From Burkholderia savannae (GTDB lineage: Bacteria; Pseudomonadota; Gammaproteobacteria; Burkholderiales; Burkholderiaceae): a stretch of DNA of 64,000 nt. How positions within the stretch are numbered: position 1 is the first letter of the stretch; every line of letters starts with the position of its first letter. The notes under the pieces are model-generated. The model was not told the DNA's origin. It was given only the letters and a program-made list of their open reading frames with translations, and made no database searches. Of this stretch, positions 6,436 through 39,434 are shown piece after piece. The position numbers and the translations under genes are program-made. The stretch lies in the NCBI RefSeq assembly GCF_001524445.2, contig NZ_CP013418.1:1922001-1986000 (forward strand), written 5' to 3'.

Positions 6436-6486
6436 CCCGACGATCGCCGGCGACGCGCGAGATTGCGCGCCCGCCGTCGACGGCCG

Positions 6487-9123: not shown

Positions 9124-9234
9124 CGCGCGCGCGACGCGTGCGTCTCACGCATGCGCCGATTGCAAAGACTTCACTTTTCTGAACGCGAGCGACGCCCGTA
9201 GACTGCCTCCGTCATTCATCACGGAGCGCGATCA

Positions 9235-21820: not shown

Positions 21821-23329
21821 CTAACGCATCGCCGCGCGAAACGCCCCGAAGGTCTGCCCGTTCGGCCGGAGGCGAATGTCCGGATCGAGGCGCGCCCACG
21901 CGAGATCCGCGGGATCGGCGGCCATCGGCCCCGGCGCTTTCGCGACGAGGATCGCCTCGGCGATCGCTTCGAAGTCCGCACGAAAATGAACCGAGCTCTT
22001 GTTCACGACGATCCGCATCCGCTCGGGCTCGATGCCCGCGACACGGAACTGGTTGCGCTCGAAGGTCTGCATCTTGTTCGTGCTCACCGCGATCCTGACG
22101 CCTTCGATGCGCAGGCAGGCCACCGCGCCGAGATCGCCGCGCGCGCCGTTGAACATCGGGCCGTCGAAACGAAAACACCCGTCGGACAGATGCTCGACCT
22201 CGAAATCGGCCGCGAGCGGCGCATCGCCGCGCACGCCCGAGCGGCCGCCGAGGCTCAGGCCGATGCGCGCGCCGACGCCCGCGCGGTGCGCGGCGGCCGC
22301 GGCGTCGGGGTCCCAGATCACGCCCACCGCCGCGTCCGTCGCCGCGCGGCGAAGCAGCGCCCGCACCATGCCCATCGTGTCGGCGTCGCCGCCCGCGCCG
22401 GGGTTGTCCTGCGTGTCGGCGATGACGACGGGTTTCGTCGCGCCGCGGCTCAGGCGAATCGCTTCGGCCACGGCGGCGTCGGGCGTCAGGAACGGCACGC
22501 CCCAGCGCGTTTCGTCGTCGACGAGTTTCGCGCACAGCACGTCGACCGCACGCTCGGCCGCGTCGCCATCGAACGCGTGCGCCCACACCGTGGGCCCGCA
22601 TTCCGGAAAATCGGCGGCCGGAAAACCCGGAGCGAACGACATCGATACGACGCCGTCCCGTTCGAGTTGCGCGAGCAATCGATACGCGCCGCCCGCGGGC
22701 TCCGCGTGCGTGCACATGCCGTTGATCGGGATCAGGAACGGCAGCCGGCGCATCGCGCAATGCAGCGGCCGGCGTTCGGACACGATTCGCTCGAGCACCT
22801 GCGCGGCGCGCTCGCCGGTTGCCGCCATGTCGACGTGAGGATAGGTGCGATACGCGACGAGCGCGCTCGCGTGCGCGGCCATCCGCGCGGTGACGTTCGC
22901 GTGCAGATCGAGCGACGCGACGATCGGCATCCGGCTGCCGACGATCCGCCGCACGCGCGCGAGGATCTCGCCTTCGCCGTCGTCGTGCTGCTCGGTGACC
23001 ATCGCGCCGTGCAGGTCGAGATAGATCGCGTCGAACCCGCCCGCCTCGACCGCGGCGACGATCTCGCCGCCGATCCGCTCGAACGCGTCGGCCGTGACGT
23101 GCGCGGACGGGCACGCGCCCGCCCAGATCACGGGCAGCAGCGCGTGCCCGTTCGCCTGAGCGGCCCGGATGAAGCCGCCGACCGGCACGTTGACGTCGCG
23201 CAGCGACAGCACGTCCGCGCCGCGCGCCAGCGGCGGAAAGCCTTCGCCGCGAACGAAGCTCTGATACGACGCCCGCGTCGGCGCGAACGTATTGGTCTCG
23301 TGCTGGAAGCCTGCAATCAGAATGTTCAT
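21821..23329 (-). CDS. M81 family metallopeptidase (MlrC-like)
   Basis: 502 residues, the normal size of the MlrC family. MlrC from Sphingomonas hydrolyses linearised microcystin; most relatives have unknown substrates and are often next to peptide or opine uptake genes. Landmarks: start MNILIAGFQHETNTFAP, metal-site segments DLHGAMV and SLDLHANVT, TQDNPGAGGDADTMG near residue 325, and the domain II end NKSSVHFRADFE. ATG at 23329 was preferred over an earlier in-frame ATG because family similarity starts there. It is divergent from a LysR gene that probably controls it. No partner transporter is adjacent. Confidence 0.9.
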   Translation of the reverse strand: MNILIAGFQHETNTFAPTRASYQSFVRGEGFPPLARGADVLSLRDVNVPVGGFIRAAQANGHALLPVIWAGACPSAHVTADAFERIGGEIVAAVEAGGFDAIYLDLHGAMVTEQHDDGEGEILARVRRIVGSRMPIVASLDLHANVTARMAAHASALVAYRTYPHVDMAATGERAAQVLERIVSERRPLHCAMRRLPFLIPINGMCTHAEPAGGAYRLLAQLERDGVVSMSFAPGFPAADFPECGPTVWAHAFDGDAAERAVDVLCAKLVDDETRWGVPFLTPDAAVAEAIRLSRGATKPVVIADTQDNPGAGGDADTMGMVRALLRRAATDAAVGVIWDPDAAAAAHRAGVGARIGLSLGGRSGVRGDAPLAADFEVEHLSDGCFRFDGPMFNGARGDLGAVACLRIEGVRIAVSTNKMQTFERNQFRVAGIEPERMRIVVNKSSVHFRADFEAIAEAILVAKAPGPMAADPADLAWARLDPDIRLRPNGQTFGAFRAAMR

Positions 23330-23487
23330 TTCGCCTTTCCGTGTGGAGGACGGCATCTCGTGCGTGCCTTCGCCGGACGATCGCTGCATGGCGTTCATGT
23401 TGGCAGCGCATGGCGCTACTAGCAAGAGCAACTAAGTTCACATATCGTTGACTCGTGAGCAACGACAGATCGACACGGGAGCCCTCG

Positions 23488-24447
23488 ATGCGAGACATCA
23501 ACCTCCAGCGCCTTCGGTACTTTCATGAAGTGCTGACGCACGGCACCATTCGCGGCGCAGCGGAGCACATCAACACGTCGCCGTCCGTCATCACGCGGCA
23601 GATCAGGCTGCTCGAGGAAGAGCTCGGCACCGCGCTGTTCGAGCGGCAGGCGCGCGGCGTGCGGCCGACTGAGGCCGCCGCGCATCTGCTCGAGTTCTGG
23701 CGGGGCTACCGGTCGCAACAGGAAAAGCTCGAAGACCAGCTTCACGCGCTGAAGGGCCTGCAGCAAGGGCACATCCGGATCGTCGTCAGCGAAGGATTCG
23801 TCGACACGCTCGTCGACGACGTGCTGGCGCCGTTCTGCGCGACATACCCGAAGCTCGCGATCGGCGTGGACATGCTGGCGGTCGATTCGATTCTCGAAGA
23901 GGTCGCGCAAAGCCGCGCGCACATCGGGCTCGCGTACAATCCGCCGCCCCATCCGCAGATCGCGTATCGCGCGAGCTCGCCGCAGCCGGTCGTGCTGTTG
24001 CTGCGGCGCGATCACCCGCTCGCGCGGCGCAAGCGGCCGGCGGCCATCGACGATCTTCGCGCGTACCCGCTCGCACTGATGCCGCCGACGTTCGGCATCG
24101 GTCACGTGGTGAAGATGCTGGAGCTGGCCGAGAACGTCGCGATCCGGCCGACGTTGACGACGAATTCGCTGACGGCCTTGAAGCGCATCGTCACCGCGGA
24201 GAACTTCATCACGCTGATCGGCGAGTTCGCCGCCTATCGGGAGATTGCGAACGGCGAGCTGACGACGGTGCCGATCGCGCATCCGCTATTCGAGGGGACG
24301 CATGCGCGGGTGCTCGTCAAGTCGGGACGGCCGCTCGCGCCCGGTCCGCTCGAATTGCTCAAATGGATCGAGACTCGGTTGGCGGTGTTTTCGGGGCCGG
24401 CTGCCGGCGGCGGCGAAAAACGAAAGAGTCGACACGGCAAGCATTGA
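23488..24447 (+). CDS. LysR-family transcriptional regulator
   Basis: 319 residues from ATG 23488 (a GTG at 23455 would add 11 residues). The N-terminal winged HTH runs over about residues 2-65: [42 protein letters not shown]. An effector domain follows, and the tail is lysine/arginine-rich. It is divergent from the MlrC gene across 125-160 bases, the standard arrangement for a LysR regulator and its target. The effector is unknown. A hairpin begins within the stop-codon region (see terminator). Confidence 0.9.
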
Positions 24448-24476
24448 ATGCTTGCATTCAGTGCTTGCTTCGTTTT
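24437..24476 (+). terminator. Terminator-like hairpin at the end of the LysR gene
   Basis: GCAAGCATTGAATGC and GCATTCAGTGCTTGC are inverted copies (15 bases, one mismatch) separated by TT and followed by TTCGTTTTG. The stem overlaps the stop codon. It probably ends the LysR transcript and marks the left boundary of the accessory segment. Confidence 0.6.
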
Positions 24477-24911
24477 GTCACGGTGGCTGACATGGGCGAA
24501 CGCGTCGATTGCAATGGGATTCACGGGCCACACGAGGAGCCGCGGAGATCCATGGTTTTCCTTGGCGGCCCTCAGGCGTCGCTGCCGGCCTTGCGTCGCG
24601 AGCCACGGAGCGCCATCGGCAATCCTGCGACATTGGCGCGTCAGCAAGAACCTCGTATTCGCCGCGAACGTATCGCGTTCGCACAAACAACGCCATCGCG
24701 CGCATGACCGTGACGAGTATCACCGGTGCATCGAATGGCGAACTCGCAACCGTCGCGGGTGGCTCATCGGGGCCGCGATGCGGCTTGGCCCGGCTTGTCG
24801 CAAACGCCTCCGCTCGAAATCGGGCAACTCCGATGGCGGCTCGAAATTCGCGAGACGCACCGGCCGAGCGGTTGCGGGCGGTTGCGGGCGGACGGCTCCG
24901 GTCCGCACGAT

Positions 24912-25022
24912 AGGAATGTCTGCCATGTTCGGCAACCTGTTCTTATCGAGCCTGAACAGCAGACCGGACCTTACCAGCACGGGGACGTAATAGTCGCCGG
25001 CGATCACGACGTCGTACCCACG
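24912..25022 (-). pseudogene. Fragment of a spermidine/putrescine-type solute-binding protein
   Basis: About 37 codons read GYDVVIAGDYYVPVLVRSG..LDKNRLPNM. This matches the PotD/PotF pattern 'GYDVVVPS.Y....I..G....LDK..LPN'. Both sides of the frame lose similarity, and the upstream part of such a gene is missing or frameshifted. Known: the motif is characteristic of polyamine-binding proteins. Inference: this is a remnant of a deleted transporter gene. Confidence 0.55.
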
Positions 25023-25160
25023 GCGTGTCGACCATGATGATGCAAGCGACGCAGCGTTGCCCTTGCTGCTTGAGCATCGCCTGTGCGAGCAAATCGGCAC
25101 GGGCCGGTCGCCCGGCCGATTCGCCATCGTGAAGCCCGCCCCATGGGCGGCGCTGAAACA

Positions 25161-25380
25161 CTGATCGTTGATTCCGTTCATCGCCGTGAATCTGCGTGAC
25201 CGACAACACCGCCGCGTCGAGCGGATTCTTGTTGCGTGTGACGATTCCTTGCAGCGCGGTCAGGATCTGCACGACCGCGAACACCAGATCGCAGCCGAGA
25301 TGCGGTATCGCGCCATGGCGGCCGGCGCCGCGCACGTCGATCCGGAACAGGCTCGTCGACGCCTTCAGCAGCCCCGGCCG
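25161..25380 (-). pseudogene. Fragment of an M20 amidohydrolase/peptidase gene
   Basis: About 70 codons match the dimerisation-domain region of hippurate hydrolase/M20 peptidases: RGAGRHGAIPHLGCDLVFA, then QILTALQGIVTRNKNPLDAAV and LSVTQIHGD. The N- and C-terminal catalytic parts are absent in any frame. It lies just upstream of the polyamine-binding-protein fragment on the same strand, so both may descend from one lost catabolic cluster. Confidence 0.65.
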
Positions 25381-25975
25381 CACCGCGAAGTGCCCGGCCA
25401 GTTGCGCAGACCGAACGCCGCGTCTTTATGCATGTGTCGTGCTGCCACTCTATGACGCCGCCGGAAAAGCGCGGATTGCGACCGCCGTCGACACCTCCCC
25501 CCTCTTCGATTTCGCTGACTTTCTTTTCGATTCCGATCGGTCAATTGATTTTTCTCACTGTAGCGCCGACGAAACACATCGCTGCATTTCCATTTCATCT
25601 AGACTATTATCTGGCGCCAAGAAATTCCATTCAAATTGATTTTGAATGGCCATTCTTCGGAATCCATCTTTCGAGTTAGTCCGATTTCTATTGATATAGA
25701 TTGTTGACGCAGGCTGCGTGGCACGGGTGGCCGGAATCGTTCTGCCGTCGTCTTTTGCCGGCAACGACCTCGTCAATCTTTCTGGATCGACTTCCCTGAG
25801 ACTGTTGAGGCGGCATCGCCGCATCTGATGACGAGACAATTGACTCATTCAAAATTCATTGCACGATTGTTTTTCAGTTCAATAAGTTTCTGAAATTCTA
25901 AAATCAAATAAATCAATATTTCTTTGGAAAATTCATTTCCATTGATTTTCCGCATATATCACGCATTCATCATCC

Positions 25976-27243
25976 ATGTCTGAATCCGTATTTCGCCCGT
26001 TGCTGGAAATTTCCCGCCGTCAAGACGTGCTGTTCTGTCTTGCGCTGACCACCTTCGAACTGCTCGCCCATCTCGCCAGCGATATGGTGATGCCCACGAT
26101 GTTGCAGGTCACCCACGACTTGTCCGCCGCGCGGCACCACGCGCCTGTCGCACTCCATGCCTTCCTGTTCGGCGACATCGCGTTCCAATGGCCGCGGGGG
26201 CCGCTGTCGGACCGCATCGGCTGCTGGCCGTTGCTGCTCACCGGCACTCTAGTGTTCGCAGCCGCCTGCCTGGCCGCGGTCGCCAGCCGGCATATCGGCG
26301 GCTTCAACCTGCGGCGCTTCGTCAAGGGCACCTTTTCGTCGTGGTCAGCTACCCGGCGCTGCAAGAGACCTTTGCCGAGCGCGACGCGGTACGGCTGATG
26401 GCGCTGTTCGCCGATATCGCGCTCCAGTCGCCACTCGCCGGACCGTTGGCCGGCACGCTGCTGCTGCGGGCACTGTCGTGGCGCGAGCTGTTCGTCGCGA
26501 TCGGCGCCGTTGGCGCGCTGGTCACACTGGGCCTGTGGCGCTGTATGCCGGAAACGGCGCGCGCCGCGCCGCCGCCCCGGCCGCCGCGCGCGTGGGCGGT
26601 GCTTGCCCACTACGCGACGCAGCCACGTCATCGAGACCCCGTGTACGGCAGCCTCACGCTCGGCCTGTTGCCGCTGCCGCCGATCGTGTCGATCGGCCTG
26701 CCGCCGCGGTTGATCCGCGATCCGGGGTACGGCGGGCTGGCCTACGGACTCTGGCAGCTTTCCGTGTTCGGCGCCGTGATCGCCGGCAACCTGGCATTGA
26801 ACCGGCTCACCGTCCGGCCCGACGTGTCCCGCTTGCTGCGCATCGCGCTGTACCCGGCTACCGCTGGCTTGCTACTGCTGGGCGCCGTCGTGCCGCTGTC
26901 ACCCACGCTGCCACTGCTGCGTGCCGGCCTCTCCGTCCACCCATTCGGCGTGGGCCTGGGTAACGCGACGCCTTATCGGCTGACGCTATACAGTACCGAC
27001 GAGGCCACGGGCAGCGTCGCCGCGCCGCTCGGCATGCCGTCCGTCGCGATGCCGGCGGCCGGCGGCGCAGCCCTCGCGTGGGTCCGCGCCGGGGATTCGC
27101 CGACCCGCTTCGGCATCAGCGTCAGCCTGGTCTCGCTGCTGGTCTCGCTGCTGGCCGCGCCGCTGCTCTGGCGCGTGCTGCGCCAAGCGCGCCCTGCTCC
27201 CACCGTCGCCCGATTTCCACCTTCCCCGCTCCCCCTCTCATGA
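25976..27243 (+). pseudogene. MdfA/Cmr-like MFS multidrug transporter, frameshifted
   Basis: The gene is readable along its full length as an MdfA-type drug/proton antiporter, but in two frames. Frame one runs from ATG 25976 through helices 1-3, including FELLAHLASDMVMPTML. That segment keeps the acidic residues corresponding to E26 and D34 of MdfA; PLSDRIGCWP is the MFS loop motif. At about 26325-26335 similarity jumps to a second frame (FVVVSYPALQETFAERD) and continues to the stop at 27243. Relative to MdfA, a few residues are missing at the junction, so a small out-of-frame deletion is likely. The junction should be resequenced before calling it dead. Its stop overlaps the start of the next gene (ATGA), so it was the first gene of the set. 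Confidence 0.8.
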
Positions 27244-28370
27244 CTACGCTGCCCCATGTGGACGCGCTCTGCGCGCTCGAACACCCATACCGCGCCGACG
27301 ACGCCTGCGACCGCCTGTTCGACGCCGCGATGCGCGAACTGGTCGCTTACCACTGCGACGCAAGCCCCGGCTACCGCCGCTGGCTGGAGCGGAACGGCTG
27401 TCCGCCCGCGGACCTGGGCGCACTGTCCGATTGGTCGGCATTGCCGCCGATCTTCGCCAACTACTTCAAGCGCAATCTGCTGCTCAGCGAAACCGGCCAG
27501 GACGCACTCGAGCTGACCTCGTCCGGCACCACCGGCCAGAAGAGCCGCATGCGCTACGACGCGCGCAGCATGGGCGCCGCCCAGCGGATGGTGGACCGGG
27601 TCTTCGAGCATTACGGCTGGCATACGCCGGATCAACCTTGCAACTACCTGCTGCTCAGCTACGAACCCCGCGGCGCGATCACGCTCGGCACGGCCTATAC
27701 CGACCAGTTCCTGTGCAAGTACGCGCCGGTCAATCACGCGGTCCATGTGCTTCGCCATACCGGCACGGGTCATGAGTTCGACCCGTTTGGCGCGATCCGC
27801 GCGCTGCAGCGTTTCGCCGACGAAGGCCTGCCGGTGCGCATCTTCGGTTTTCCCGCGTTCCTGTGGTTCACGCTTCGGCGCATGGGCGACATGGGCGTCC
27901 CGCCGCTGACGCTGCATCCCGACTCGCTGGTGTTTCTCGGCGGCGGCTGGAAAACCCATGCGGATGCCGCGATTCCAAAGCCCGAGCTGTATCGCCGCCT
28001 GGGCGAACAGCTCGGCGTGCCGGATTCGCGCTGTCGCGACGGTTATGGCTCGGTCGAGCATCCGGTGCCCTACGTCGAGTGTGCCCGCCATCGCTTTCAC
28101 GTGCCGAGCTGGGCGCGCGCGTGGGCCCGCGACACCGCCACGCTGGCCCGGCTGCCCTATGGTGCGCCGGGCTTTCTCCACCTGGCGTCGCCCTTCATTT
28201 CCTCCAGCCCGGCGCACAGCCTGCTGTTGAGCGACCTGGCCGTGTTGTGGCCGGCCGAGCGCTGCGGCTGCGGCGCGCCCACCGACTGGTTCGACCTGCT
28301 GGGCCGCGCCGGCACCAGCAAGAACCGGAGCTGCGCGATGGCGGCATCCGAACTGATCAAGGAGCGTTGA
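27240..28370 (+). CDS. LuxE-like acyl-protein synthetase (fatty-acid/aryl-acid adenylating, acyl-transferring)
   Basis: 376 residues of the LuxE/acyl-protein synthetase family. In the lux system LuxE activates a fatty acid as acyl-AMP, holds it on a C-terminal cysteine and passes it to LuxC for reduction. The adenylate-forming P-loop TSSGTTGQKSRM is near residue 96. The C-terminus GRAGTSKNRSCAMAA carries Cys365, matching the position of the acyl-accepting cysteine of LuxE (about 364). A CGCG pair lies just before it. ATG overlaps the transporter's stop, and a LuxC-like gene starts one base after its own stop. No luxAB luciferase genes are present, so light emission is not implied. Confidence 0.85.
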   Translation: MTTLPHVDALCALEHPYRADDACDRLFDAAMRELVAYHCDASPGYRRWLERNGCPPADLGALSDWSALPPIFANYFKRNLLLSETGQDALELTSSGTTGQKSRMRYDARSMGAAQRMVDRVFEHYGWHTPDQPCNYLLLSYEPRGAITLGTAYTDQFLCKYAPVNHAVHVLRHTGTGHEFDPFGAIRALQRFADEGLPVRIFGFPAFLWFTLRRMGDMGVPPLTLHPDSLVFLGGGWKTHADAAIPKPELYRRLGEQLGVPDSRCRDGYGSVEHPVPYVECARHRFHVPSWARAWARDTATLARLPYGAPGFLHLASPFISSSPAHSLLLSDLAVLWPAERCGCGAPTDWFDLLGRAGTSKNRSCAMAASELIKER

Positions 28371-28371
28371 C

Positions 28372-30774
28372 ATGTACCTGCTTCACGGCGTGCTGCACGC
28401 CGACCACGACCTCGACACGGCGCTCGCGCTGCTGCGCGAACGGCTCGCCGACACGCTCGCCGATCCGCTCGACAGCGAGACCGTGCTCGCCTGCGCCGAA
28501 CGTTTCGCCGAGGCGCTGCAGGAAGGCGCGCCGTCGGCGCTGCCGGACACCGCCGCGCGCGCCGAACTGGCCGCGTTCTGCCGGCGCCCGGCACTGCAAG
28601 CCAAGCTCTCGCGGGAATTGGGCGAGCAGCCCGGCTCGCTGCGTCGTCCGGATTACCGCGAGCCACGCTTCGAAGCATGGCGGCCACTCGGCGTGGTGCT
28701 GCACGTGACGCCCGCCAACGCCGCACTGCTGCCCTTCATGGCCGTGCTGGAAGGTCTGCTGGCGGGCAACATCAACTGGCTGCGCCCGAGCAGCCGCACC
28801 GACGACCTGAGCGCGCGCCTGCTCGCCGAACTGCTGCGACACGACGCGAGCGGCCGGCTCGCCGCGCACATCGCCGTGCTGCCGGTGCCGAGCGCGCGAC
28901 TCGGTGCGTTGCTGGCCTGCGCCGACGGCGTGTCCGCGTGGGGCGGCGCCACGGCGCTCGCGGCCCTGCGCGCGCAATTGCCGCCCGGTTGCCGCTGGAT
29001 CGACTGGGGGCACCGGATCAGCTTCGCCTACCTGGCTCCGGACGCCCTCAGCGACGCGCAACTCGACGCGCTCGCCGACGACGTGTGCCGCCACGACCAG
29101 CAGGCCTGCTCCAGTCCGCAGGCCGTGCTGGTGGACAGCGACGATCCGGCGACGCTCGACACGCTTGCGCGCCGGCTCGCCGCCGCGCTGCGACGCCGGG
29201 CGCCCCATTGGCCCGCGCTGCGCGCGGATCGGCAGGAGGCAGCGGAGATCAGCACCCGCATGGCCTTCCATCGGCTGGACCAGGCGTTCGCCGACGCGCC
29301 GGGCGAGGTCATCGACGGCGACGGTTGGCGGATCGCGTGGACCTTGCGCGAGGAATTGACGCCATCGCCGCTGTTCCGCACCGTCGAGCTGCGCCCGGCC
29401 CCGCGTGCGAGACTGGCCGGCATCCTGCGCCCGTGGCGCACTCGTCTGCAAAGTTGCGGACTGGTCGCCGCCGCCCGCGTGCCCGAGCTGAGCCGGCTGC
29501 TGCTCGCGGCGGGCGTGAGCCGCATCACGCCCGTCGGTCGCATGCACGACGGTTATGCCGGCGAGCCGCACGACGGCGCCTATGCGCTGCAACGCCTGTC
29601 GCGCCGCGTGTCGGTGAGCCTCGACCCCGCCACGCTGCCCGGCCACGCCCACCTGGACGCACCGCCTGCCATGCCGGAAGGCCTGCACGCGTCGCCGGTG
29701 ATGGACAAGGCCGCGTTCCAACACCAGCCCGATCACGCGCGGGCGCAACTCTACTTCCGGAGCGGCGGCAGCAGCGGCACGCCCAAGCTGGCCCGCTTCA
29801 GCTATCGCGACTACCACCGCCAGATGCGCGCCGCGGCCGACGGCCTGTTCGCCGCCGGACTGGACCCCGCCACCGATCGGGTGATGAATCTCCTCTACGG
29901 CGGCAATCTGTACGGCGGCATGCTCAGCTTCTTCACGATCCTCGAAGCGCTCGGGGTGCCGCAGTATCCGATGGGCGGCCCCGTCGACGATGATTTCAGC
30001 GAGATCGCCCGGCTGATCGTCGAACAGCGCATCGACACGCTGATCGGCATGCCGGGCACCGTGCACCGGCTGTTCGAACGCGAAAGCGACGCGCTGCGCC
30101 GCTACGGCGGGGTGCGCAAGGTGTTCTGCGGCGGCGAGCATGTCAACGCCGGGCAACGCACGTATCTGGCGAGCTTCGGCGTCGAGCTGATTCGCTCGGC
30201 GATCTACGGCTCGGTGGACGCCGGTCCGCTCGGCCATGCGTGTGCGAGCTGCGCCGACGGCGAGTTCCACCTGCTGGCGGACACGCAATGGCTGGAAGTG
30301 CTGGAGCCTGCGCGCGACGTCCCTGCCGCGCCGGGCGAGACCGGCCGGCTGGTGTTCACGTCGCGCCACCGCGAAGCCCAGCGGGTGCTGCGCTACGACC
30401 TGGGCGACCTGGGCCGGTGGTTACCGGGGGTCTGCCCATGCGGGCTGGAGACGCCGCGCTTCCGGCTCGCCGGCCGCCATGGCGCGCTGTTGCGGGTCGG
30501 CACGATCTTCGTCGATCCGGAGCAACTGAGCCGGCCCATCGGCCAGCCGATGCAGTGGCTGATCGATCGTGATGACGGTGGGCGCGACCGCATCCGGCTG
30601 CTCGTCGACGGTGATCCGGCCTCGATCCGCGCACGCGTGCTGGACGACGCCATGCTGAACCAGGTCGTGAGCGGCGGGCTGCTGCGCCTCGAGGTGAGCG
30701 CCGTTGCGGCCGCCGCGTTCCAGCGCCATCCACACAGCGGCAAGACGCCGTTCGTCATGGATCTGCGCGGCTGA
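28372..30774 (+). CDS. LuxC-like acyl reductase fused to a PaaK/CoF-synthetase-like adenylating domain
   Basis: 800 residues, about twice a normal LuxC. Residues 1-430 are LuxC/acyl-CoA reductase-like: PLGVVLHVTPANAALLPFMAVLEGLLAGNINWLRPSS at about 105-141 and the catalytic-cysteine motif DQQACSSPQ with Cys246. Residues 440-800 are a phenylacetate-CoA-ligase-like adenylating domain: P-loop SGGSSGTPK at 464-472, a mid-domain glycine-rich GGNLYGG, CGGEHV, and two CxxC pairs (HACASC and CPCG) as in CoF/PaaK enzymes with a zinc knuckle. The product is predicted to activate an acid and reduce an acyl-thioester to an aldehyde. Fusion of a reductase and a second ligase next to a LuxE is unusual. The gene starts one base after the LuxE stop, so translation is coupled. 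Confidence 0.82.
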   Translation: MYLLHGVLHADHDLDTALALLRERLADTLADPLDSETVLACAERFAEALQEGAPSALPDTAARAELAAFCRRPALQAKLSRELGEQPGSLRRPDYREPRFEAWRPLGVVLHVTPANAALLPFMAVLEGLLAGNINWLRPSSRTDDLSARLLAELLRHDASGRLAAHIAVLPVPSARLGALLACADGVSAWGGATALAALRAQLPPGCRWIDWGHRISFAYLAPDALSDAQLDALADDVCRHDQQACSSPQAVLVDSDDPATLDTLARRLAAALRRRAPHWPALRADRQEAAEISTRMAFHRLDQAFADAPGEVIDGDGWRIAWTLREELTPSPLFRTVELRPAPRARLAGILRPWRTRLQSCGLVAAARVPELSRLLLAAGVSRITPVGRMHDGYAGEPHDGAYALQRLSRRVSVSLDPATLPGHAHLDAPPAMPEGLHASPVMDKAAFQHQPDHARAQLYFRSGGSSGTPKLARFSYRDYHRQMRAAADGLFAAGLDPATDRVMNLLYGGNLYGGMLSFFTILEALGVPQYPMGGPVDDDFSEIARLIVEQRIDTLIGMPGTVHRLFERESDALRRYGGVRKVFCGGEHVNAGQRTYLASFGVELIRSAIYGSVDAGPLGHACASCADGEFHLLADTQWLEVLEPARDVPAAPGETGRLVFTSRHREAQRVLRYDLGDLGRWLPGVCPCGLETPRFRLAGRHGALLRVGTIFVDPEQLSRPIGQPMQWLIDRDDGGRDRIRLLVDGDPASIRARVLDDAMLNQVVSGGLLRLEVSAVAAAAFQRHPHSGKTPFVMDLRG

Positions 30775-30804
30775 ACTTCCGTCGTCCATACATTGCTCAT
30801 CACC

Positions 30805-32067
30805 ATGCATCCACGCCTCATTCCCCTCGTCGAGCATGCGCGCGCGCATTCGCCTCACTACCGCGCGCTGTACCGTGCGTTGCCCGCCCACGGCTGGCGC
30901 CTGACCGACCTGCCGACGATCGATCCCGCCGATTACTGGCGGGATTCGCAGGACCTGACGCGCTGGCGCGCGCTGACCGCCGCGCCGAACGACGGCCACG
31001 TGTTCAAGACCGGCGGCTCCACCGGCGACGGCAAGCTGTCGGTGTTCAGCCGCGCCGAATGGCGCGCGTTCGTGCAGGCGTTCGGCGCGGGCCTCGCGCG
31101 CCAGCTGCGCGACGGCGACCGGGTCGCCAACCTGTTCTTCGCGGGCGACCTCTACACCAGCCTGTTGTTCATCCACGGCGCGCTGTCGCATGCGCCCGTG
31201 GCCCTCGTCGAGTACCCGTTCACCTGCCATGTCGACCACGACGTGCTGGCGGCCGCGATTCGCCAGCACCGCATCAACGTCCTGGCCGGCGTGCCGGCGC
31301 AGTTACTGCGTTTCGCCCGTCACCTGGCGGCGCATGGCCACACCTTGCCGGACGTGCGGGCAGTGCTCTACGGCGGCGAGACCTTGTTCGACGAGCAGAT
31401 CGCGCTGCTCGCACAGGTATTGCCGCGTGCCCGCGTCGGCTCGGTGGGCTGCGCAAGCGTCGACGCGGGCCTGATCGGCTATGCCGATCAGGCTTGCGGG
31501 CACGGCGAACATCGCGTGTTCGACGACGACAGCATGATCGAGATCGTCGACGAGGAGAGTGGTGAGCCCATCGACGAAGCCGGGCGCCGGGGCGTCCTGC
31601 TGGTCACCAACCTGCAGCGCCGGTTGATGCCCGTGATCCGTTATCCCAGCGGCGATCTCGCGTGCTGGCGCGAACCGCCCGGCCCCGCGCGCAAGTTCGC
31701 GCTGCTCGGGCGCGCCGCGCATGGCCACCGGGTCCGTGTCGGCACGCTGTCGCTGTTTCCGGAGGCGCTCGGGCGCGTGCTCGACGCAGCATGCGCGCTG
31801 CTGGGGTGGCAACTGGAAGTCGCGCGCGCGGACGGCGTGGATTGCCTGACGCTGCTGCTGGCGGCGCGCGCGCCGCTGGATCTCGAACGAATCCGCGATG
31901 CCGTATTCATGGCTCAGCCGGCGATCGCGGCACTGTGCGCCGAACAGCAATTGCGCGTGGCGCTACGGCAGACGCCACTGGAACGGATGCGTACCCATCC
32001 GCGCTCGGGCAAGCTGCTGCGGATCGTCGACCAGCGCGACTACGCGCATGCGGAGGCCTGGCGATGA
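30805..32067 (+). CDS. PaaK-like (phenylacetate-CoA ligase/CoF synthetase family) adenylating enzyme
   Basis: 420 residues. The ATP-binding loop KTGGSTGDGK is near residue 70. YGGETLFDEQ and a domain with the YPSGDLACW adenine-site signature follow, and the C-terminal lid region contains HPRSGKLLRIVD. It lacks the paired cysteines seen in the fused ligase. Similarity in plan to the C-terminal half of the preceding protein suggests divergence from a duplicated ligase. ATG at 30805 was chosen over a TTG four codons upstream. It starts 30 bases after the LuxC-PaaK gene and its stop overlaps the next start (ATGA). The acyl substrate is unknown. Confidence 0.8.
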   Translation: MHPRLIPLVEHARAHSPHYRALYRALPAHGWRLTDLPTIDPADYWRDSQDLTRWRALTAAPNDGHVFKTGGSTGDGKLSVFSRAEWRAFVQAFGAGLARQLRDGDRVANLFFAGDLYTSLLFIHGALSHAPVALVEYPFTCHVDHDVLAAAIRQHRINVLAGVPAQLLRFARHLAAHGHTLPDVRAVLYGGETLFDEQIALLAQVLPRARVGSVGCASVDAGLIGYADQACGHGEHRVFDDDSMIEIVDEESGEPIDEAGRRGVLLVTNLQRRLMPVIRYPSGDLACWREPPGPARKFALLGRAAHGHRVRVGTLSLFPEALGRVLDAACALLGWQLEVARADGVDCLTLLLAARAPLDLERIRDAVFMAQPAIAALCAEQQLRVALRQTPLERMRTHPRSGKLLRIVDQRDYAHAEAWR

Positions 32068-33011
32068 GCGAGCGCGATCCGCTGGAGGCATTGGTGCGCG
32101 ACTATCAGGCGGCCGATGCCGAACCCGTCAGCGCGTTGTTTCGCGCGGTCTATGGCGAGCATTACGTGTATCCGGACGTCTATCTGCCGAGCCGGATTCA
32201 CGCGCACAACGTCAGCGGCCGATGGCGCTCGGCGGTGGCGGTCCGCGACGGGCGGCTGCTGGGCCACGCGACATTGTGGCGGGATGCGGCGCGGCCCGGG
32301 CTGGCGGAACTGGCGCTGAACGTTGTGCATCCGGACGCGCGCGGCCAGCGCATCGCGAGCCGGCTCGCCCGTCATCTGCACGCGACGGCGGGACGGCTCG
32401 GCGTCGGCATGGTGACGATCAAGCAGGTCTGTTCGCATCCGCGCAGCCAGCATGTCGCGCTGGCGCTGGGGTTTCGCAGCACGGCGCTGCTGATCGACTA
32501 CGTCGAATCGCCGTTCGGGCAGGCGGAACGGGAGAGCATCGTGGTCGGGTGCCTGCCGCTGCGTGCGTGGCCTCTGCCTCGGCTCGACTGGCCGGCGCAC
32601 TGGCGCGCATGGCTGGACAGTTTGCGCGCGGCGTTCGGCGAGGCGCCGCCGGCACCGGACTCCGCCGCGTCGGACTTCACGCTGACGCGGGACGGCTTGC
32701 GGGTCGTGCTGGAGACGTCGCGGGCAAGTGAAGCGCAGATCGCCGAGATTGCCGCGCTGCCCGCGCGTTCGTTGCTCGATCTGAGCTTGCCGGCCACGGC
32801 GGAAAATGTGGCGCACGCGCCCGTGTTGACGCGCGGCGGATTCCGTTTCGGCGGCTTGTTGCCCGCCGCGAACGGCGGCTGGCGGCTGCTTTGGCTGCGC
32901 GGACGGGGGCCACGGGAGCTACATCTGTGCGATCGTCAAGGCGAGCGTTTGTATCGGCTCTATGCGGAGGCGGAGCCAGGTGCGCGCGAATCAGGGAATC
33001 GCTGTCCATGA
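32064..33011 (+). CDS. GNAT-family N-acyltransferase with an extra C-terminal domain
   Basis: 315 residues. The N-terminal GNAT domain (about 10-150) shows LALNVVHPDARGQRIASRLARHLH, the acetyl-CoA-binding motif A with its R-G-Q-x-x-A pyrophosphate loop. The C-terminal 150 residues are not recognised but look like a second alpha/beta fold, possibly a degenerate GNAT repeat. It is translationally coupled to the upstream PaaK-like gene by an ATGA overlap and is the last gene of the set. It could transfer an acyl group to an amine formed by the pathway, or provide self-protection; both are inference. Confidence 0.75.
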   Translation: MSERDPLEALVRDYQAADAEPVSALFRAVYGEHYVYPDVYLPSRIHAHNVSGRWRSAVAVRDGRLLGHATLWRDAARPGLAELALNVVHPDARGQRIASRLARHLHATAGRLGVGMVTIKQVCSHPRSQHVALALGFRSTALLIDYVESPFGQAERESIVVGCLPLRAWPLPRLDWPAHWRAWLDSLRAAFGEAPPAPDSAASDFTLTRDGLRVVLETSRASEAQIAEIAALPARSLLDLSLPATAENVAHAPVLTRGGFRFGGLLPAANGGWRLLWLRGRGPRELHLCDRQGERLYRLYAEAEPGARESGNRCP

Positions 33012-34552: not shown

Positions 34553-35143
34553 TCACGCGTCGCCACACGCGCTCGACCGAACGCCGCAGCACTCGGCGCC
34601 GCGTCCCGGCGGTCTCGACGCCGCACGCGCGCGGCTCATCCGCGCGGGCGCATCGTCAGGCGCATCGAGATTCGGTTCGTCGAGCAGCGCGACAGGCCGC
34701 GCGACGTAGTCGCACGGCGTGAGCCCGACCGCCCGCCGGAAATGCCGGCCGAGGTGGCTCTGGTCGAAGAAGCCGACTTCGGTCGCGACGACGGAAGGCG
34801 GCACGCCCCGCAGCAACAGATCCTGCGCGCGACGTATCCGCACGCGGCACAGATAGCGATGCGGCGACAGGCCCACTTCGTCTCGAAAGCGCGCCGCGAA
34901 TCGCGACACGCTCAGGCCCGCGACGTCCGCGAGCATGTGCAGATTGAGCGGCTGCGCGAAGTGCGTGTCGATGAAGCGCAGCGCGCAGCACACGGCGCGC
35001 GATACGGGGCGCGACTCGGGACGCGATACGGCGCGCGACTCGGGACGAGACCCGTGACGAGACTCCGGGCGTGCCCCAGGGCGCGCCGCCGCGCACGCCG
35101 CAGCGGGCGCGGCGGCGTCGATGCGATCCGGAACGTTCGCCAT
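34553..35143 (-). CDS. AraC-family transcriptional regulator with a repetitive N-terminus
   Basis: 196 residues. The C-terminal AraC DNA-binding domain (about 50-155) contains two HTH motifs: LNLHMLADVAGLSVSRFAARFRDEVGLSPHRYL, then the second with PPSVVATEVGFFDQSHLGRHFRRAVGLTPCDY. Instead of a sensing domain there is a short segment with repeated SRPESR/VSR units, and the tail is disordered. It starts 11 bases after the opine-oxidase-like subunit gene and is therefore likely co-transcribed with, and a regulator of, the amine/opine genes upstream. Confidence 0.85.
   Translation of the reverse strand: MANVPDRIDAAAPAAACAAARPGARPESRHGSRPESRAVSRPESRPVSRAVCCALRFIDTHFAQPLNLHMLADVAGLSVSRFAARFRDEVGLSPHRYLCRVRIRRAQDLLLRGVPPSVVATEVGFFDQSHLGRHFRRAVGLTPCDYVARPVALLDEPNLDAPDDAPARMSRARAASRPPGRGAECCGVRSSACGDA
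34993..35070. repeat. Imperfect 24-base repeat inside the AraC-family gene
   Basis: GGCGCGCGATACGGGGCGCGACTCGGGACG-type words recur about three times and encode the SRPESR units of the regulator's N-terminus. Repeats are in frame, so length variation would be tolerated. Confidence 0.65.
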
Positions 35144-35153
35144 GCGCGCTCCG

Positions 35154-36305
35154 TCACGCCGCCGCTTGCGCGACCGTTGGCGGCGACACGAAGCGCGCGA
35201 TCGAAAACGGCTCGATCGGGGTGCGCGTCGCGCCGCTGTCGATCAGTTCGGCCATCGTATCGCCGACGCCCGGCCCGAGCTGGAAGCCATGCCCGCAAAA
35301 GCCGAATGCGTAATAGAGGCCGTCGACCTTCGCGCTGCGTCCCATGATCGGGCGATCGTCGGGCATGTAGCCTTCCACGCCGCTCCACACGCGGATGATG
35401 TTCAGCCGCGCGAGCGCGGGCGCGACGCGCGCGAGCTGGCGAAACTGCAGCAGCGTGCTTTCCGGCAGCACCTTCGCGCGGCGCTCGTCGAGATACGCGC
35501 TCGCGCGCGCGCAGCCGCCGATCACGATGTTGCCGCGCTCCACCTGCCGGAAGTACACGACTTCCTCGATGTGCGGCGAAGATACGCCGACAACCGGCCG
35601 GATCGCGTACGGCACGGGCTCGGTGACGGCCATCTGCGGGCCGTTCACTTCGATCGGCACCGCTTCGCCGAACTGCGCGCTCAACTGGCTGCCCCACGCG
35701 CCCGCGGTCACGAGCAGATTCGGCGCGCAGAACACGCGGCCGTCGGCGGTGCTCGCGCGGAACGTGTCGCCGTCCTTCTCGACGGTCACGATCGCGGTGT
35801 TCTCCTCGATCCTCGCGCCCGCGCGCGCCGCCGCGCGGCCGAACGCCGGCGCCGCGAGCCGCGGGTTCGCATGGCCGTCCATCTCCGAATGCGACGCGCT
35901 CAGGATCTCGGGGCCGAGAAACGGAAACTTCGCGCGCATCGCCGCGCCCCGGTACAGATCGAGCTTCAGCCCGTAATGGCTCGCTTCCTTCGCGTAGGCC
36001 TCGAACGTGTCGTCCTGCTCCTGCCGGTAGCACACGCGAATGTGCCCGGTCTGCAGGAACTCCGCGCTGTGTCCGATCAGCTCGGGCAGCCGCCCCCAGA
36101 TCTCGCGCGACCGGTTCGCGAGCGGCAGTTGCGGCAGGTAGCGGCCCTGCCGGCGCACGTTGCCGAAGTTCGTGCCGCTCGCCTGCTGTCCGATCAGCGC
36201 GCGTTCGATCAGGATCACCGAACGTCCGCGCCGGCGCAGGAAGAACGCGGCCGCCGCGCCCATGAAGCCGCCGCCGACGATCACCACATCCGCATCGGCC
36301 CGCAT
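35154..36305 (-). CDS. FAD-dependent amine/opine oxidase, OoxB/HcnC-like subunit
   Basis: 383-residue DAO-type flavoenzyme. The N-terminal FAD dinucleotide-binding motif VVIVGGGFMGAAAAFFLRRRG occupies about 7-27, with a DadA-like catalytic fold and the C-terminal FAD contact YYAFGFCGHGFQLGPG. It resembles the B subunit of opine oxidase/hydrogen-cyanide-synthase-type complexes, which oxidise an amino acid or opine. ATG at 36305 overlaps the preceding subunit's stop (TGATG). It would act with the two upstream genes as a three-subunit dehydrogenase. The substrate is not deducible. Confidence 0.88.
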   Translation of the reverse strand: MRADADVVIVGGGFMGAAAAFFLRRRGRSVILIERALIGQQASGTNFGNVRRQGRYLPQLPLANRSREIWGRLPELIGHSAEFLQTGHIRVCYRQEQDDTFEAYAKEASHYGLKLDLYRGAAMRAKFPFLGPEILSASHSEMDGHANPRLAAPAFGRAAARAGARIEENTAIVTVEKDGDTFRASTADGRVFCAPNLLVTAGAWGSQLSAQFGEAVPIEVNGPQMAVTEPVPYAIRPVVGVSSPHIEEVVYFRQVERGNIVIGGCARASAYLDERRAKVLPESTLLQFRQLARVAPALARLNIIRVWSGVEGYMPDDRPIMGRSAKVDGLYYAFGFCGHGFQLGPGVGDTMAELIDSGATRTPIEPFSIARFVSPPTVAQAAA

Positions 36306-37723
36306 CACGATTCCTCCACTGTTTCGTCCGTCGCGCGGGTGCGCGGCGTGTCCTCGCTCGCGCGCGTGGCGATCGCGAGCGGCTTGACGGGCGCCTGCCC
36401 GCGCAACCGGCCGACCGCCTCGAGCGGCAGCTTCGTCGCGTCCGCGATCACCTCGGCCGCCGCGTGGCCGCAATAACGCCCCTGGCAGCGCCCCATGCCG
36501 ACGCGGCTGAACGCCTTCGCGCGATTCGCCTCGCACGCGCCCTCGTCGCGGATCACGCGGCGCAGCTCGCCCGCGCTGATGCCCTCGCAGCGGCACACGA
36601 TCGTATCGTCGGACAGTTGCGCAGCCTGCCGCGCGGGCCACGGAAACGCTTGCGCGAGGCCCGCGCGAAAGCGGTCCATCTTCGCGAGCGTGCGTTGCAG
36701 CGCGGCGATCCGGCGTTCGTCGACCGCACGCCCGAGGTCCTTCAACGCGGCGAGCGCGGCGAGCTCGCCCGCCGCCTCCGCGCCGTCCGCGCCGAGAATG
36801 CGCGCGCCGTCGCCCGCCAGATAGACGCGCTCGACGGTCGCCCGCCCCATGTCGTCGCGCTGCGGCAGCCACTGGCGCGTGCCGGCGTCGAAGCGGAACG
36901 CGCACCCCGCGAGATCGGCCAATTGCGTCTCGGGCCGCAGGTGATAGCCGAGCGCGACCGCATCGCAGCCGATGCGGCGGGCTTCGCCGCGCGCATCGCG
37001 ATAGCTCACGCCCGTCACGCCGCACGCGTCGCCGCCGTGGATTTCGACGGGCGTCACGCCGGTTTCGATCGTCACGCCGCGCTCCTTGAGCGACGCGACG
37101 AGCCGCGCTCCCTTGAACAGCGCGTCGGGCCGCGCGAGCAGCTTCGGCAGCGCGCGCAGCCGGTTGCGCGCGGGCGACGTGTCGAGCACCGCCGCGACGT
37201 TCGCCCCCGCCTGCACGTACTGGCTCGCGACCAGATACAACAGCGGCCCCGTGCCCATGAACACGACTTCCGAGCCGATCGCGCACGCCTGCGCCTTCAG
37301 CGCGATCTGCGACGCGCCCAGGCTGTATGCGCCCGCGTATTGCCAGCCCTTCACGGGCATCAGCCGATCGGTCGCGCCGGGGCAGAGGATCAGCGCATCG
37401 TACGGATGGCGCGCCGAGCAACCCGCGCGCATCGTGTAGAGCGCGCCGCCCGACACGTTCCACGCGAGCGTGTCGGGCGAGTAGTCGACCATCGCGCGCA
37501 GCCGCTCGAACGTGCCGTGCAGATCGAGCGCGCGTCGCGCCTCGGTGCCGTACAGCTTCGCATACGGCCGCGAGAACTGTTCGGGCTGCCGACGATAGAT
37601 CTGTCCGCCGTCGCGGCGCCCTTCGTCGATCACGAGCGCTCGCACGCCCGCCTCCGCCAGCGCCGCCGCGCAGCGCACGCCCGCCGGCCCCGCGCCGACG
37701 ACGATCACGCGAGGTTCGGCCAT
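36305..37723 (-). CDS. NAD(P)/FAD oxidoreductase subunit with BFD-type [2Fe-2S] domain (OoxA-like)
   Basis: 472 residues. The N-terminal FAD site VIVVGAGPAGVRCAAALAEAGVRALVIDEG (about 5-34) and a second dinucleotide site near SEVVFMGTGPLLYLVASQY are present. A C-terminal BFD-like [2Fe-2S] domain has CRCEGISAGELRRV and CQGRYCG cysteines. This is the layout of opine oxidase subunit A and of HcnB/SoxA-like proteins. It overlaps the upstream (2Fe-2S) protein gene by 19 bases and the downstream subunit by one base, so the three are strictly coupled. Confidence 0.88.
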   Translation of the reverse strand: MAEPRVIVVGAGPAGVRCAAALAEAGVRALVIDEGRRDGGQIYRRQPEQFSRPYAKLYGTEARRALDLHGTFERLRAMVDYSPDTLAWNVSGGALYTMRAGCSARHPYDALILCPGATDRLMPVKGWQYAGAYSLGASQIALKAQACAIGSEVVFMGTGPLLYLVASQYVQAGANVAAVLDTSPARNRLRALPKLLARPDALFKGARLVASLKERGVTIETGVTPVEIHGGDACGVTGVSYRDARGEARRIGCDAVALGYHLRPETQLADLAGCAFRFDAGTRQWLPQRDDMGRATVERVYLAGDGARILGADGAEAAGELAALAALKDLGRAVDERRIAALQRTLAKMDRFRAGLAQAFPWPARQAAQLSDDTIVCRCEGISAGELRRVIRDEGACEANRAKAFSRVGMGRCQGRYCGHAAAEVIADATKLPLEAVGRLRGQAPVKPLAIATRASEDTPRTRATDETVEES

Positions 37724-38013
37724 TGCGCCTCCGGCTGTCGCGTGACGACGTCGAGCGACGCGTCGACGAGCGTCGTGCACGCGCGCACGCGCCCGCCGTC
37801 GGCCGTCCATACCCAGCAGTCCTGACAAGCGCCCATCAGGCAGAAGCCCGCGCGCGCCTCGGGGCCGAATTCCGATTGCCGGACATGGCCCGTGTGGCAA
37901 AGCATCGCCACGAGCAGCGTGTCGCCTTCGAGCGCGTCGACCGCCCGCCCGTCGACGCGAAACGTCACGGTTGCGCGTTCGGTTTCGGCCAGCCGAACGA
38001 ATCGCGATTTCAT
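37705..38013 (-). CDS. Small (2Fe-2S) ferredoxin-like subunit (OoxC/HcnA-like)
   Basis: 102-residue Fer2_4 protein. The cluster cysteines lie in CHTGH..., GFCLMGACQDCWV and RAC near residues 45-80, as in the small subunit of opine/sarcosine-type oxidases. TVTFRVDGRAVDALEGDTLLVAML is the usual beta-grasp opening. ATG at 38013 is chosen because similarity starts there. It overlaps the next gene and transfers electrons within the complex. Confidence 0.88.
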   Translation of the reverse strand: MKSRFVRLAETERATVTFRVDGRAVDALEGDTLLVAMLCHTGHVRQSEFGPEARAGFCLMGACQDCWVWTADGGRVRACTTLVDASLDVVTRQPEAQWPNLA

Positions 38014-38092
38014 GGGTGCCCTCCAGTCGCTCCGCGTGAACGAAGCGCATCGTGATCGGAAGCGGCGCGGCGCGCGCCGGGCGTCGTCGGCT

Positions 38093-39370
38093 TCAATGCA
38101 GGATGTCCTGCAGGCGATAGTACGCACCGACGAACGGCAGGAACCACGCGTGCCCGAAGTGGCCCGGCATCGCCGGCCAGTCGAGCTCGCGCCACGGATT
38201 GCTCGCGGCCGCGCCGTACAGCACGTCCGCCATCACGCGGCCCATGTGCACCGACATCTGCACGCCGTGGCCGCTGTAGCCCATCGAGTAGTACAGCCCT
38301 TCGTGCTGGCCCGCGCGCGGCAGGCGGTCGGCCGTGATGTCGACGAGGCCGCCCCAGCAATAGTCGAGCCGCACGTTCGCGAGCTCCGGAAAATACGCGG
38401 CCATCCCCGCTCGCAGGATGTCGCCGCTCTTCGCGTCGGAGTGCGGATTCGACAGCGCGAAGCGCGCGCGGCCGCCGAACAGCAGGCGATCGTCGGGCGT
38501 CACGCGAAAGTAGTTGCCGATGTGGCGCGTCGTCACGTACGCGCGCCGGTTCGGAAACAGGCGATCGAGCTGCGCCTTCGGCAGCGGCTCGGTGACGACG
38601 ATGAAGCTGCCGACGGGCGCGATGCGGCGGCGGAACCACTGGAACGGGCCGAGCTGCGACGCGCCCGTCGCGACCAGCACGCGATCCGCGCGAATCGTGC
38701 CGCGCGTGCTCGTGATCTCATGGCGCTCGCCGTCGAGGCGCTTCAACTGCGTGACGGCCGCGTGCTCGTAGACGCGCGCGCCGCGCGCGACGGCCGCGCG
38801 CGCGAGCCCGACGCCGAACTTGCCCATGTGCATCTGCGCGCCGGTACGTTGCAGCAGGCCGCCGTAGAAGCGGTCCGAGCCGACTTCGTCGCGCATGTGC
38901 GCGGGTTCGATCAGCTCGACGTCCGGATCGACGTCGCGGCGCAGCAGCTCGAAAGTCTTCGCGAGCCCGGCGAAATGCTGCGGCTTCGCCGCGAGCTTCA
39001 GCTTGCCGGTGCGCAGGAAGTCGCAGTCGATCGCATGCTCGGCGACGATCGAATCGACGGTCGCGACGGCACTCGCATAAGCGCGATAGAACGCCTGCGC
39101 GCGCGGCGCGCCGACGCGCGCGGCGAGCGCCGCGTAATCCTGCGCGAGCCCGGTGTTGCACTGGCCGCCGTTGCGCCCGGACGCCTCGGCCGCGATCTGC
39201 CCCGCTTCGAGCACGACCGCCTGCACGCCGCGCTTCGCGAGTTCGAGCGCGGCCGACAGCCCGGTGAAGCCGCCGCCGATCACGACGACGTCCGCGCGCC
39301 CTTCGACGGGCGCCTCGCAGCCTTCGCAAAATTCCGGGCGCGTATCCAGCCAGTACGATTCGAATTTCAT
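38093..39370 (-). CDS. FAD-dependent oxidoreductase, gamma-glutamylputrescine oxidase-like (PuuB/OrdL)
   Basis: 425 residues, DAO family. FAD motif VVVIGGGFTGLSAALELAKRG is near residues 30-50, GRNGGQCNTGLAQDY is the PuuB/OrdL-type second motif, and YYSMGYSGHGVQMSVHMG is the C-terminal flavin contact. PuuB relatives oxidise secondary or primary amines such as gamma-glutamylputrescine to an aldehyde. The downstream opine-oxidase-like genes and the upstream aldehyde dehydrogenase suit an amine-to-acid route. ATG at 39370 gives family length. Confidence 0.88.
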   Translation of the reverse strand: MKFESYWLDTRPEFCEGCEAPVEGRADVVVIGGGFTGLSAALELAKRGVQAVVLEAGQIAAEASGRNGGQCNTGLAQDYAALAARVGAPRAQAFYRAYASAVATVDSIVAEHAIDCDFLRTGKLKLAAKPQHFAGLAKTFELLRRDVDPDVELIEPAHMRDEVGSDRFYGGLLQRTGAQMHMGKFGVGLARAAVARGARVYEHAAVTQLKRLDGERHEITSTRGTIRADRVLVATGASQLGPFQWFRRRIAPVGSFIVVTEPLPKAQLDRLFPNRRAYVTTRHIGNYFRVTPDDRLLFGGRARFALSNPHSDAKSGDILRAGMAAYFPELANVRLDYCWGGLVDITADRLPRAGQHEGLYYSMGYSGHGVQMSVHMGRVMADVLYGAAASNPWRELDWPAMPGHFGHAWFLPFVGAYYRLQDILH

Positions 39371-39434
39371 CGGTTCCTTCACACGATTGACCCACGCAGG
39401 CGAGCCGGCGTCGCGCGACGCCGGCTCGCGCCGA

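What the first reader, a model, noticed from the sequence alone, without database searches (positions are those of the whole stretch)
25976..33011. Luciferase-free LuxE / LuxC-PaaK / PaaK / GNAT gene set with an exporter: possible undescribed acyl-aldehyde or acyl-amide pathway
Seen: five genes in one direction joined by ATGA overlaps or 1-30-base gaps. They keep the LuxE C-terminal Cys (C365), the LuxC catalytic Cys motif (DQQACSSPQ), two separate PaaK-type P-loops and a GNAT motif. Known: LuxE plus LuxC turn a carboxylic acid into an aldehyde through acyl-AMP and acyl-enzyme stages. There are no luciferase, ketosynthase or carrier-protein genes here. Inference: three adenylating domains and one reductase could activate two or three different acids, reduce one to an aldehyde and let the GNAT enzyme acylate a product. 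I do not know of a described pathway with this exact order.
Basis: partly seen in the sequence, partly recalled or inferred. Interest (0 to 1): 0.78.

Follow-up and report, generated by a model that had tools for sequence, protein, structure and literature searches.

The report
Leupeptin gene cluster in a Burkholderia
These genes are a Burkholderia copy of the known operon that makes leupeptin, a small peptide that blocks protein-cutting enzymes, so the pathway is real but already described; its exporter gene looks broken here.

Summary
It matches the leupeptin operon, leupABCD. In G895, a genome placed in the Klebsiella group only by primer matches, two published leup primers match without mismatch. 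They enclose 1,235 bp, the published size, and lie in LuxE and LuxC-PaaK. G895 has the order transporter, LuxE, LuxC-PaaK, PaaK, GNAT, with 68/55/50/43% identity of the four enzymes to the window. A cited passage says leupeptin is made without an NRPS, by separate AMP-dependent ligases plus a reductase, in Xenorhabdus bovienii. An X. bovienii genome carries this set, with one LuxE and one LuxC match. The enzymes fit Ac-Leu-Leu-argininal: one acetylation, two amide bonds, one ATP-driven reduction. The best 80 relatives kept all share the four-gene order. Two corrections: the transporter is split over two frames here but reads in one frame in relatives, and the set is an accessory cassette, full length in 3 of 37 same-genus genomes. 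Product and expression in this strain are untested.

The parts
25976..26398 (+). first part of an MFS transporter (nearest to MdfA/Bcr-CflA type), separated by a frame break from the rest; candidate leupeptin exporter, probably inactive as sequenced
   Evidence: PF07690 E 1e-7, 31.5 bits, under the cut-off of 33.4; NCBIfam MdfA family E 1e-22, under its cut-off; aligned in a different frame from the second part
26188..27243 (+). ORF holding the second part of the same MFS transporter (homology from about 26335 to 27117)
   Evidence: PF07690 E 7e-8, 32.3 bits, under the cut-off of 33.4; MdfA family E 4e-44, under its cut-off; single-frame homologues in L141, L002 and L001
27240..28370 (+). leupA homologue: LuxE-type acyl-adenylating enzyme with C-terminal transfer Cys365
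   Evidence: PF04443 E 3e-21; aligns to LuxE chain 7xc6_E; 68% identical to the LuxE gene of G895 that holds the published leupA_f primer
28372..30774 (+). leupB homologue: LuxC-type acyl-thioester reductase (Cys246) fused to a PaaK-type adenylating domain
   Evidence: PF05893 E 2e-122 and a weak AMP-binding match; aligns to LuxC chain 7xc6_A; 55% identical to the gene of G895 that holds the published leupB_r primer
30805..32067 (+). leupC homologue by order: stand-alone PaaK-type adenylating ligase (TTG at 30793 is an alternative start)
   Evidence: PF00501 E 3e-8; PaaK structures matched; 50% identical to G895
32064..33011 (+). leupD homologue by order: GNAT N-acetyltransferase, proposed to acetylate leucine
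   Evidence: PF00583 E 7e-9; 43% identical to G895

Best explanation
This is a leupeptin operon (leupABCD) with a disrupted transporter gene in front. Proposed working: the GNAT protein acetylates leucine with acetyl-CoA. The two PaaK-type domains adenylate Ac-Leu and then Ac-Leu-Leu and couple them to Leu and Arg, giving the acid Ac-Leu-Leu-Arg. LuxE adenylates the C-terminal carboxylate with ATP and passes the acyl group through Cys365 to Cys246 of LuxC, which reduces it with NAD(P)H to the aldehyde Ac-Leu-Leu-argininal (leupeptin). The aldehyde traps the active-site Ser or Cys of trypsin-like and papain-like proteases. Shown here: homology, gene order, catalytic residues, and the match of a relative's operon to the published leup primers. 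Inferred: which ligase makes which bond, the residues used in this strain, and that the operon is expressed.
For: Published primers leupA_f and leupB_r match G895 with 0 mismatches and enclose 1,235 bp as published, inside LuxE and LuxC-PaaK; the insertion-site primers core_f and core_r lie on either side of the cassette; the order including the upstream MFS is the same. In the second genome, G904, the order is the same but the primers have 4 and 2 mismatches. Passages: leupeptin comes from a non-NRPS pathway of separate AMP-dependent ligases plus a reductase in X. bovienii SS-2004 (PMC11212599); leupeptin acid is reduced by an enzyme using NADH and ATP (PMC7714073). X. bovienii T228 has this set (L008; 74, 61, 62 and 44% identity to the window) and one LuxE and one LuxC family match at E 0.001. 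80 of 80 kept loci have the four-gene order.
Against: No metabolite data for this strain. The original leupeptin paper (Li et al. 2020) is not held, so gene functions rest on citing passages. Before it was found, the primers matched none of the loci tried: leupA_f exactly in 0 of 88, and either primer within 3 mismatches in 0 of 23 and 0 of 5. Identity to the G895 set is only 43-68%, so substrates could differ. The transporter is split over two frames.
Confidence: 0.93

Rival explanations
1. A leupeptin-family operon whose product in this Burkholderia differs from leupeptin in one or more residues or in the acyl group (for example lysinal, homoargininal, or another hydrophobic residue).
For: Known leup operons already vary: a lysine-leupeptin analogue in Klebsiella and homoarginine forms in Xenorhabdus and Photorhabdus (passages). 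Identity of 43-68% to the G895 proteins leaves room.
Against: The gene set and catalytic residues are conserved. The window's LuxC groups firmly with L001, L002 and G006 (100/99) and with moderate support (90/94, not starred) with Photorhabdus, Xenorhabdus and Chromobacterium haemolyticum. No specificity residue was tested.
Confidence: 0.3
2. A long-chain fatty aldehyde pathway like bioluminescence luxCDE without luciferase.
For: LuxE and LuxC families and catalytic cysteines.
Against: NCBIfam LuxE and LuxC equivalog scores are far below cut-off (54.9 against 550, 39.8 against 750). The presumed lux-operon LuxC of G733 lies on a very long branch away from this set, a row whose exact place the tool calls unsure. 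The PaaK ligase and GNAT accompany the set in 80 of 80 kept loci. LuxD was not searched for.
Confidence: 0.03
3. A decayed, non-functional operon: the transporter break shows the cassette is no longer used.
For: MFS split over two frames.
Against: The four biosynthetic genes are full length and open, with the catalytic residues. Xenorhabdus and Photorhabdus leup operons are reported productive (passages), and their fetched loci show no MFS match of this kind (27 of 80 loci lack one; the stretch before LuxE is under 2.3 kb in L006, L008, L022 and L030). The break could also be a sequencing error.
Confidence: 0.15

Closest known systems
leupABCD leupeptin operon of the Klebsiella oxytoca complex, Photorhabdus and Xenorhabdus (Li et al. 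2020, not held; passages of PMC8283571, PMC11480411, PMC11212599)
   Same: Same four proteins in the same order, with an MFS upstream in the primer-matched genome G895
   Different: Different genus and genomic site; 43-68% protein identity to the G895 set; transporter disrupted in the window
Bioluminescence fatty acid reductase LuxC-LuxE (PDB 7xc6)
   Same: LuxE adenylation and Cys transfer, LuxC Cys reduction (mechanism recalled); both cysteines align
   Different: Acts on fatty acids (recalled); the window's LuxC carries a PaaK fusion and sits with a ligase and GNAT; scores far below the lux equivalog cut-offs
Streptomyces five-gene set on plasmid NZ_CP108162.1 (L090)
   Same: Encodes PaaK-type ligase, MFS, GNAT, LuxE and LuxC-PaaK together; LuxE 54%, LuxC-PaaK 46% and PaaK 42% identical
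   Different: Gene order PaaK-MFS-GNAT-LuxE-LuxC-PaaK; its GNAT has only a weak pairwise match to the window's (best E 0.019), though Pfam calls it GNAT (E 3e-5)

Membership tests
leupABCD leupeptin operon | same genes as the locus found by the published leupA/leupB primers | tested here: met
   Both primers match G895 without mismatch, product 1,235 bp; the locus is homologous gene by gene to the window
leupABCD leupeptin operon | separate AMP-dependent ligases plus a reductase rather than an NRPS | tested here: met
   Three adenylating domains and one LuxC reductase in the four genes, none an NRPS; definition from a passage in PMC11212599. The rest of the genome was not searched for NRPS genes
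leupABCD leupeptin operon | gene order LuxE, LuxC-PaaK, PaaK, GNAT | tested here: met
   80 of 80 kept loci, G895 and G904; the Streptomyces set L090 has another order
leupABCD leupeptin operon | adjacent transporter | tested here: inconclusive
   MFS gene present at the same place but split over two frames in the window; 27 of 80 loci show none in the fetched stretch
leupABCD leupeptin operon | product Ac-Leu-Leu-argininal or a close relative | not testable with these tools
   needs culture and mass spectrometry
bioluminescence luxCDE fatty acid reductase | NCBIfam LuxE and LuxC equivalog cut-offs | tested here: not met
   54.9 of 550 bits and 39.8 of 750 bits
bioluminescence luxCDE fatty acid reductase | catalytic cysteines of LuxE and LuxC | tested here: met
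   alignment to 7xc6 chains

The most novel reading that the evidence does not exclude
The same non-NRPS gene set, in a rearranged order, stands on a Streptomyces plasmid (five kinds of protein annotated); a Streptantibioticus plasmid holds at least its LuxE, LuxC-PaaK and PaaK. Classical actinomycete leupeptin, attributed in two papers' passages to NRPSs, may therefore in some producers be made by this LuxE/LuxC/PaaK route, which would explain the ATP- and NADH-dependent leupeptin acid reductase. The Burkholderia set would be one branch of a cross-phylum family of stand-alone-ligase peptide aldehydes, possibly with its own end residue.
Probability: 0.35. Interest if true: 0.45.

Novelty: new member of a known kind. 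Interest (0 to 1): 0.22.

Why it matters
It shows that a Burkholderia genome can probably make a leupeptin-type protease inhibitor, and that leup-type sets occur beyond the Klebsiella, Xenorhabdus and Photorhabdus named in the passages I saw: Burkholderia, Chromobacterium, Rugamonas, Parachitinimonas, Pseudomonas and Streptomyces. Whether Li et al. 2020 already list these I could not check. LuxE/LuxC can be read here as a peptide-aldehyde release pair rather than a light-making one, which helps annotators who meet these genes without luciferase.

Tried and rejected
Rejected: lux-type fatty aldehyde pathway. Rejected: a link to the neighbouring M81 (MlrC-type) peptidase and LysR gene; in G006 that block lies on contig C2 while its leup set lies on C1. 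Rejected by test: my early guess that primer leupA_f marks the start codon of leupA (translation); in G895 it lies 52 bases inside LuxE and out of frame, so it is only a primer site. Rejected: an upstream gene shared by 14 Xenorhabdus loci as a substitute transporter; from its sequence it looks like an HI0933-type flavoprotein (name recalled, not searched).

Searches that gave nothing or little: papers with LuxE, LuxC, PaaK and gene cluster together, 0; acyl-protein synthetase, acyl-CoA reductase, phenylacetate-CoA ligase and Pseudomonas together, 0; a Salmonella leup-type copy against E. coli genomes in near mode, 0; class-wide genome sample, only the window's own genome of 369 at E 1e-60; genus of G576, 1 of 61, without the primers; genus of G700, 0 of 15. 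The paper search for leupeptin, Burkholderia and gene cluster listed 7 papers, none with a Burkholderia leupeptin operon in its title; only PMC11480411 of these was opened, by passages. The search for leupeptin plus LuxE counted 90 papers and listed 8, all unrelated by title. In PMC9177418 leupeptin occurs only in the reference list. My Pfam query for window 35154-36306 (-) gave no family and was probably a badly chosen piece.

Full report
What is there. The stretch holds, on the + strand, LuxE (27240-28370), LuxC fused to a PaaK-type domain (28372-30774), a stand-alone PaaK-type protein (30805-32067) and a GNAT protein (32064-33011). LuxE starts inside the end of the transporter reading frame as ATGA; from the coordinates, GNAT overlaps the PaaK gene in the same way. 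The transporter in front is not one gene as sequenced: its first part reads in one frame (25976-26398) and the rest in another (26188-27243). A Pseudomonas homologue used as probe aligns to both parts in different frames, while L002, L141 and L001 align in a single frame, the last with about 35 residues of the probe missing. It is nearest to MdfA-type MFS proteins but scores below the cut-offs of Pfam and NCBI.

Relatives. A scan of genome contigs with LuxC-PaaK found 133 relatives, of which the best 80 were kept. They come from Burkholderia, Chromobacterium, Rugamonas, Parachitinimonas, Photorhabdus, Xenorhabdus, Pseudomonas and two enterobacterial MAGs. In 80 of 80 the four genes LuxE, LuxC-PaaK, PaaK and GNAT stand on one strand in the same order. 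An MFS match of this type lies upstream in 53 of 80. The other 27, which are the Photorhabdus and Xenorhabdus loci and MAG L030, show none in the fetched stretch, which is under 2.3 kb before LuxE in four of them (counted by eye). With the crude gene calls, none of the numbered neighbour clusters (below 60) is shared between genera apart from these five genes, except that MAG L030 shares flanking genes with Xenorhabdus.

Distribution in whole genomes. LuxC-PaaK is full length in 3 of 37 same-genus genomes, own one included, in 1 of 369 of a class sample, the own one, in 1 of 61 of the genus of G576, in 0 of 15 of the genus of G700 and in 2 of 20 of the genus of G801. LuxE is in 15 of 392 of a family sample around X. 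bovienii. Among 72,556 plasmid records LuxC-PaaK was found in 6: two Salmonella, two Streptantibioticus, two Streptomyces. It is an accessory cassette. In G006, the genome with the closest LysR match (95%), the LysR block that stands beside the window's operon lies on contig C2, flanked by sequence like the window's but with other content between, while its own leup set is on C1.

Identification. The enzyme inventory suggested leupeptin, Ac-Leu-Leu-argininal: one acetylation, two amide bonds, one carboxyl reduced to an aldehyde. I tested this. PMC8283571 (passages) gives a leupABCD locus with an adjacent transporter in the Klebsiella oxytoca complex and PCR primers for it. The primers matched none of the loci tried first (leupA_f 0 of 88 exact; either primer within 3 mismatches 0 of 23, and 0 of 5). 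In 33 genomes picked by size, core_f matched 4 within 3 mismatches and G801 exactly; the genus of G801 held two genomes with LuxC-PaaK. In G895, leupA_f and leupB_r match with no mismatch and enclose 1,235 bp, the published size. They lie in LuxE and LuxC-PaaK, with core_f and core_r on either side of the cassette. The order is MFS, LuxE, LuxC-PaaK, PaaK, GNAT, with 68, 55, 50 and 43% identity of the four enzymes to the window. In G904 the order is the same and the primers have 4 and 2 mismatches. So leupA is the LuxE gene and leupB the LuxC-PaaK gene; C and D follow by order.

Supporting text. PMC11212599 (passages) states that leupeptin derives from a non-NRPS pathway using separate AMP-dependent ligases and a reductase in X. 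bovienii SS-2004, citing Li et al. 2020. That paper itself is not held. X. bovienii T228 carries the set (L008) and has one LuxC-family and one LuxE-family match. PMC7714073 (passages) says that leupeptin acid is reduced with NADH and ATP, which is what a LuxE plus LuxC pair would need. PMC11480411 (passages) describes the leup operon, a lysine analogue in Klebsiella, homoarginine forms in Xenorhabdus and Photorhabdus, and pyrazinones derived from leupeptin.

Catalytic residues. C246 of LuxC is in 86 of 86 rows; C365 of LuxE is in 85 of 86, the exception having no residue there. Lysines near the C-termini of both PaaK domains (K791 in 86 of 86, K403 in 85 of 86) and glycine-rich loop residues are near-invariant. 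The LuxE and LuxC cysteines align with chains of the solved complex 7xc6. In a LuxC tree of 25 rows, without G895, the window groups with L001, L002 and G006 (100/99) and, with moderate support (90/94), with Photorhabdus, Xenorhabdus and Chromobacterium haemolyticum.

How it most likely works. Inferred order: GNAT makes N-acetylleucine; the PaaK domains build Ac-Leu-Leu-Arg; LuxE and LuxC reduce its end to the aldehyde. I suggest that the PaaK domain fused to LuxC adds the last residue, so that the product is next to the reductase, but nothing here tests that. With the transporter split, export would need another route, or the break is a sequencing error.

What is not settled. No product is known for this strain, and substrate residues were not predicted. 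The actinomycete sets are a separate lead: L090 holds the five kinds of protein in another order, with LuxE, LuxC-PaaK and PaaK clearly homologous, but its GNAT has only a domain-level match; in L091 the GNAT was not found by tblastn. Against that lead, PMC10548850 (passages) lists leupeptin among NRPS-made Streptomyces compounds, and PMC11212599 (passages) ties leupeptin seen in two Streptomyces isolates to an antipain-type NRPS cluster. For this I lowered that reading from 0.4 to 0.35.

Verdict. It is a new member of the known leupeptin operon family, of modest interest.

Noticed in passing
window 24448-25975: A stretch in front of the operon inside a GC-poor part of the window (24001-26000 is 59% GC, its neighbours 69%), with no Pfam family in the one ORF tried; short pieces match scattered places in G006 (L140, L141), so it looks like worn gene or mobile remnants.
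   Followed up: partly
window 21821-23431 (-) and 23455-24447 (+): M81 metallopeptidase (MlrC type) and a divergent LysR regulator; this block is about 95% identical in DNA in G006, where leup is elsewhere.
   Followed up: partly
L090 (NZ_CP108162.1) 2887-10328: Streptomyces plasmid carries PaaK, MFS, GNAT, LuxE and LuxC-PaaK in a rearranged order, with three annotated family I36 peptidase-inhibitor genes just downstream.
   Followed up: partly
L089 (CP054717.1) 4872-10630: A leup-type four-gene set on a conjugative Salmonella plasmid near recombinase and toxin-antitoxin genes; the transporter match before it is short (92 residues of the probe).
   Followed up: no
window 34553-40103 (-): AraC-type regulator, a FAD-dependent oxidoreductase, a protein with pyridine-nucleotide/FAD and BFD-like 2Fe-2S domains and a haloacid dehalogenase-like protein; they look like an amine or amino-acid oxidation operon.
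   Followed up: no
G733:C15:19541-20587: A third LuxE-family gene in G733, a genome whose contig C82 has the length of a Photorhabdus namnaonensis contig, besides the presumed lux and leup copies.
   Followed up: no
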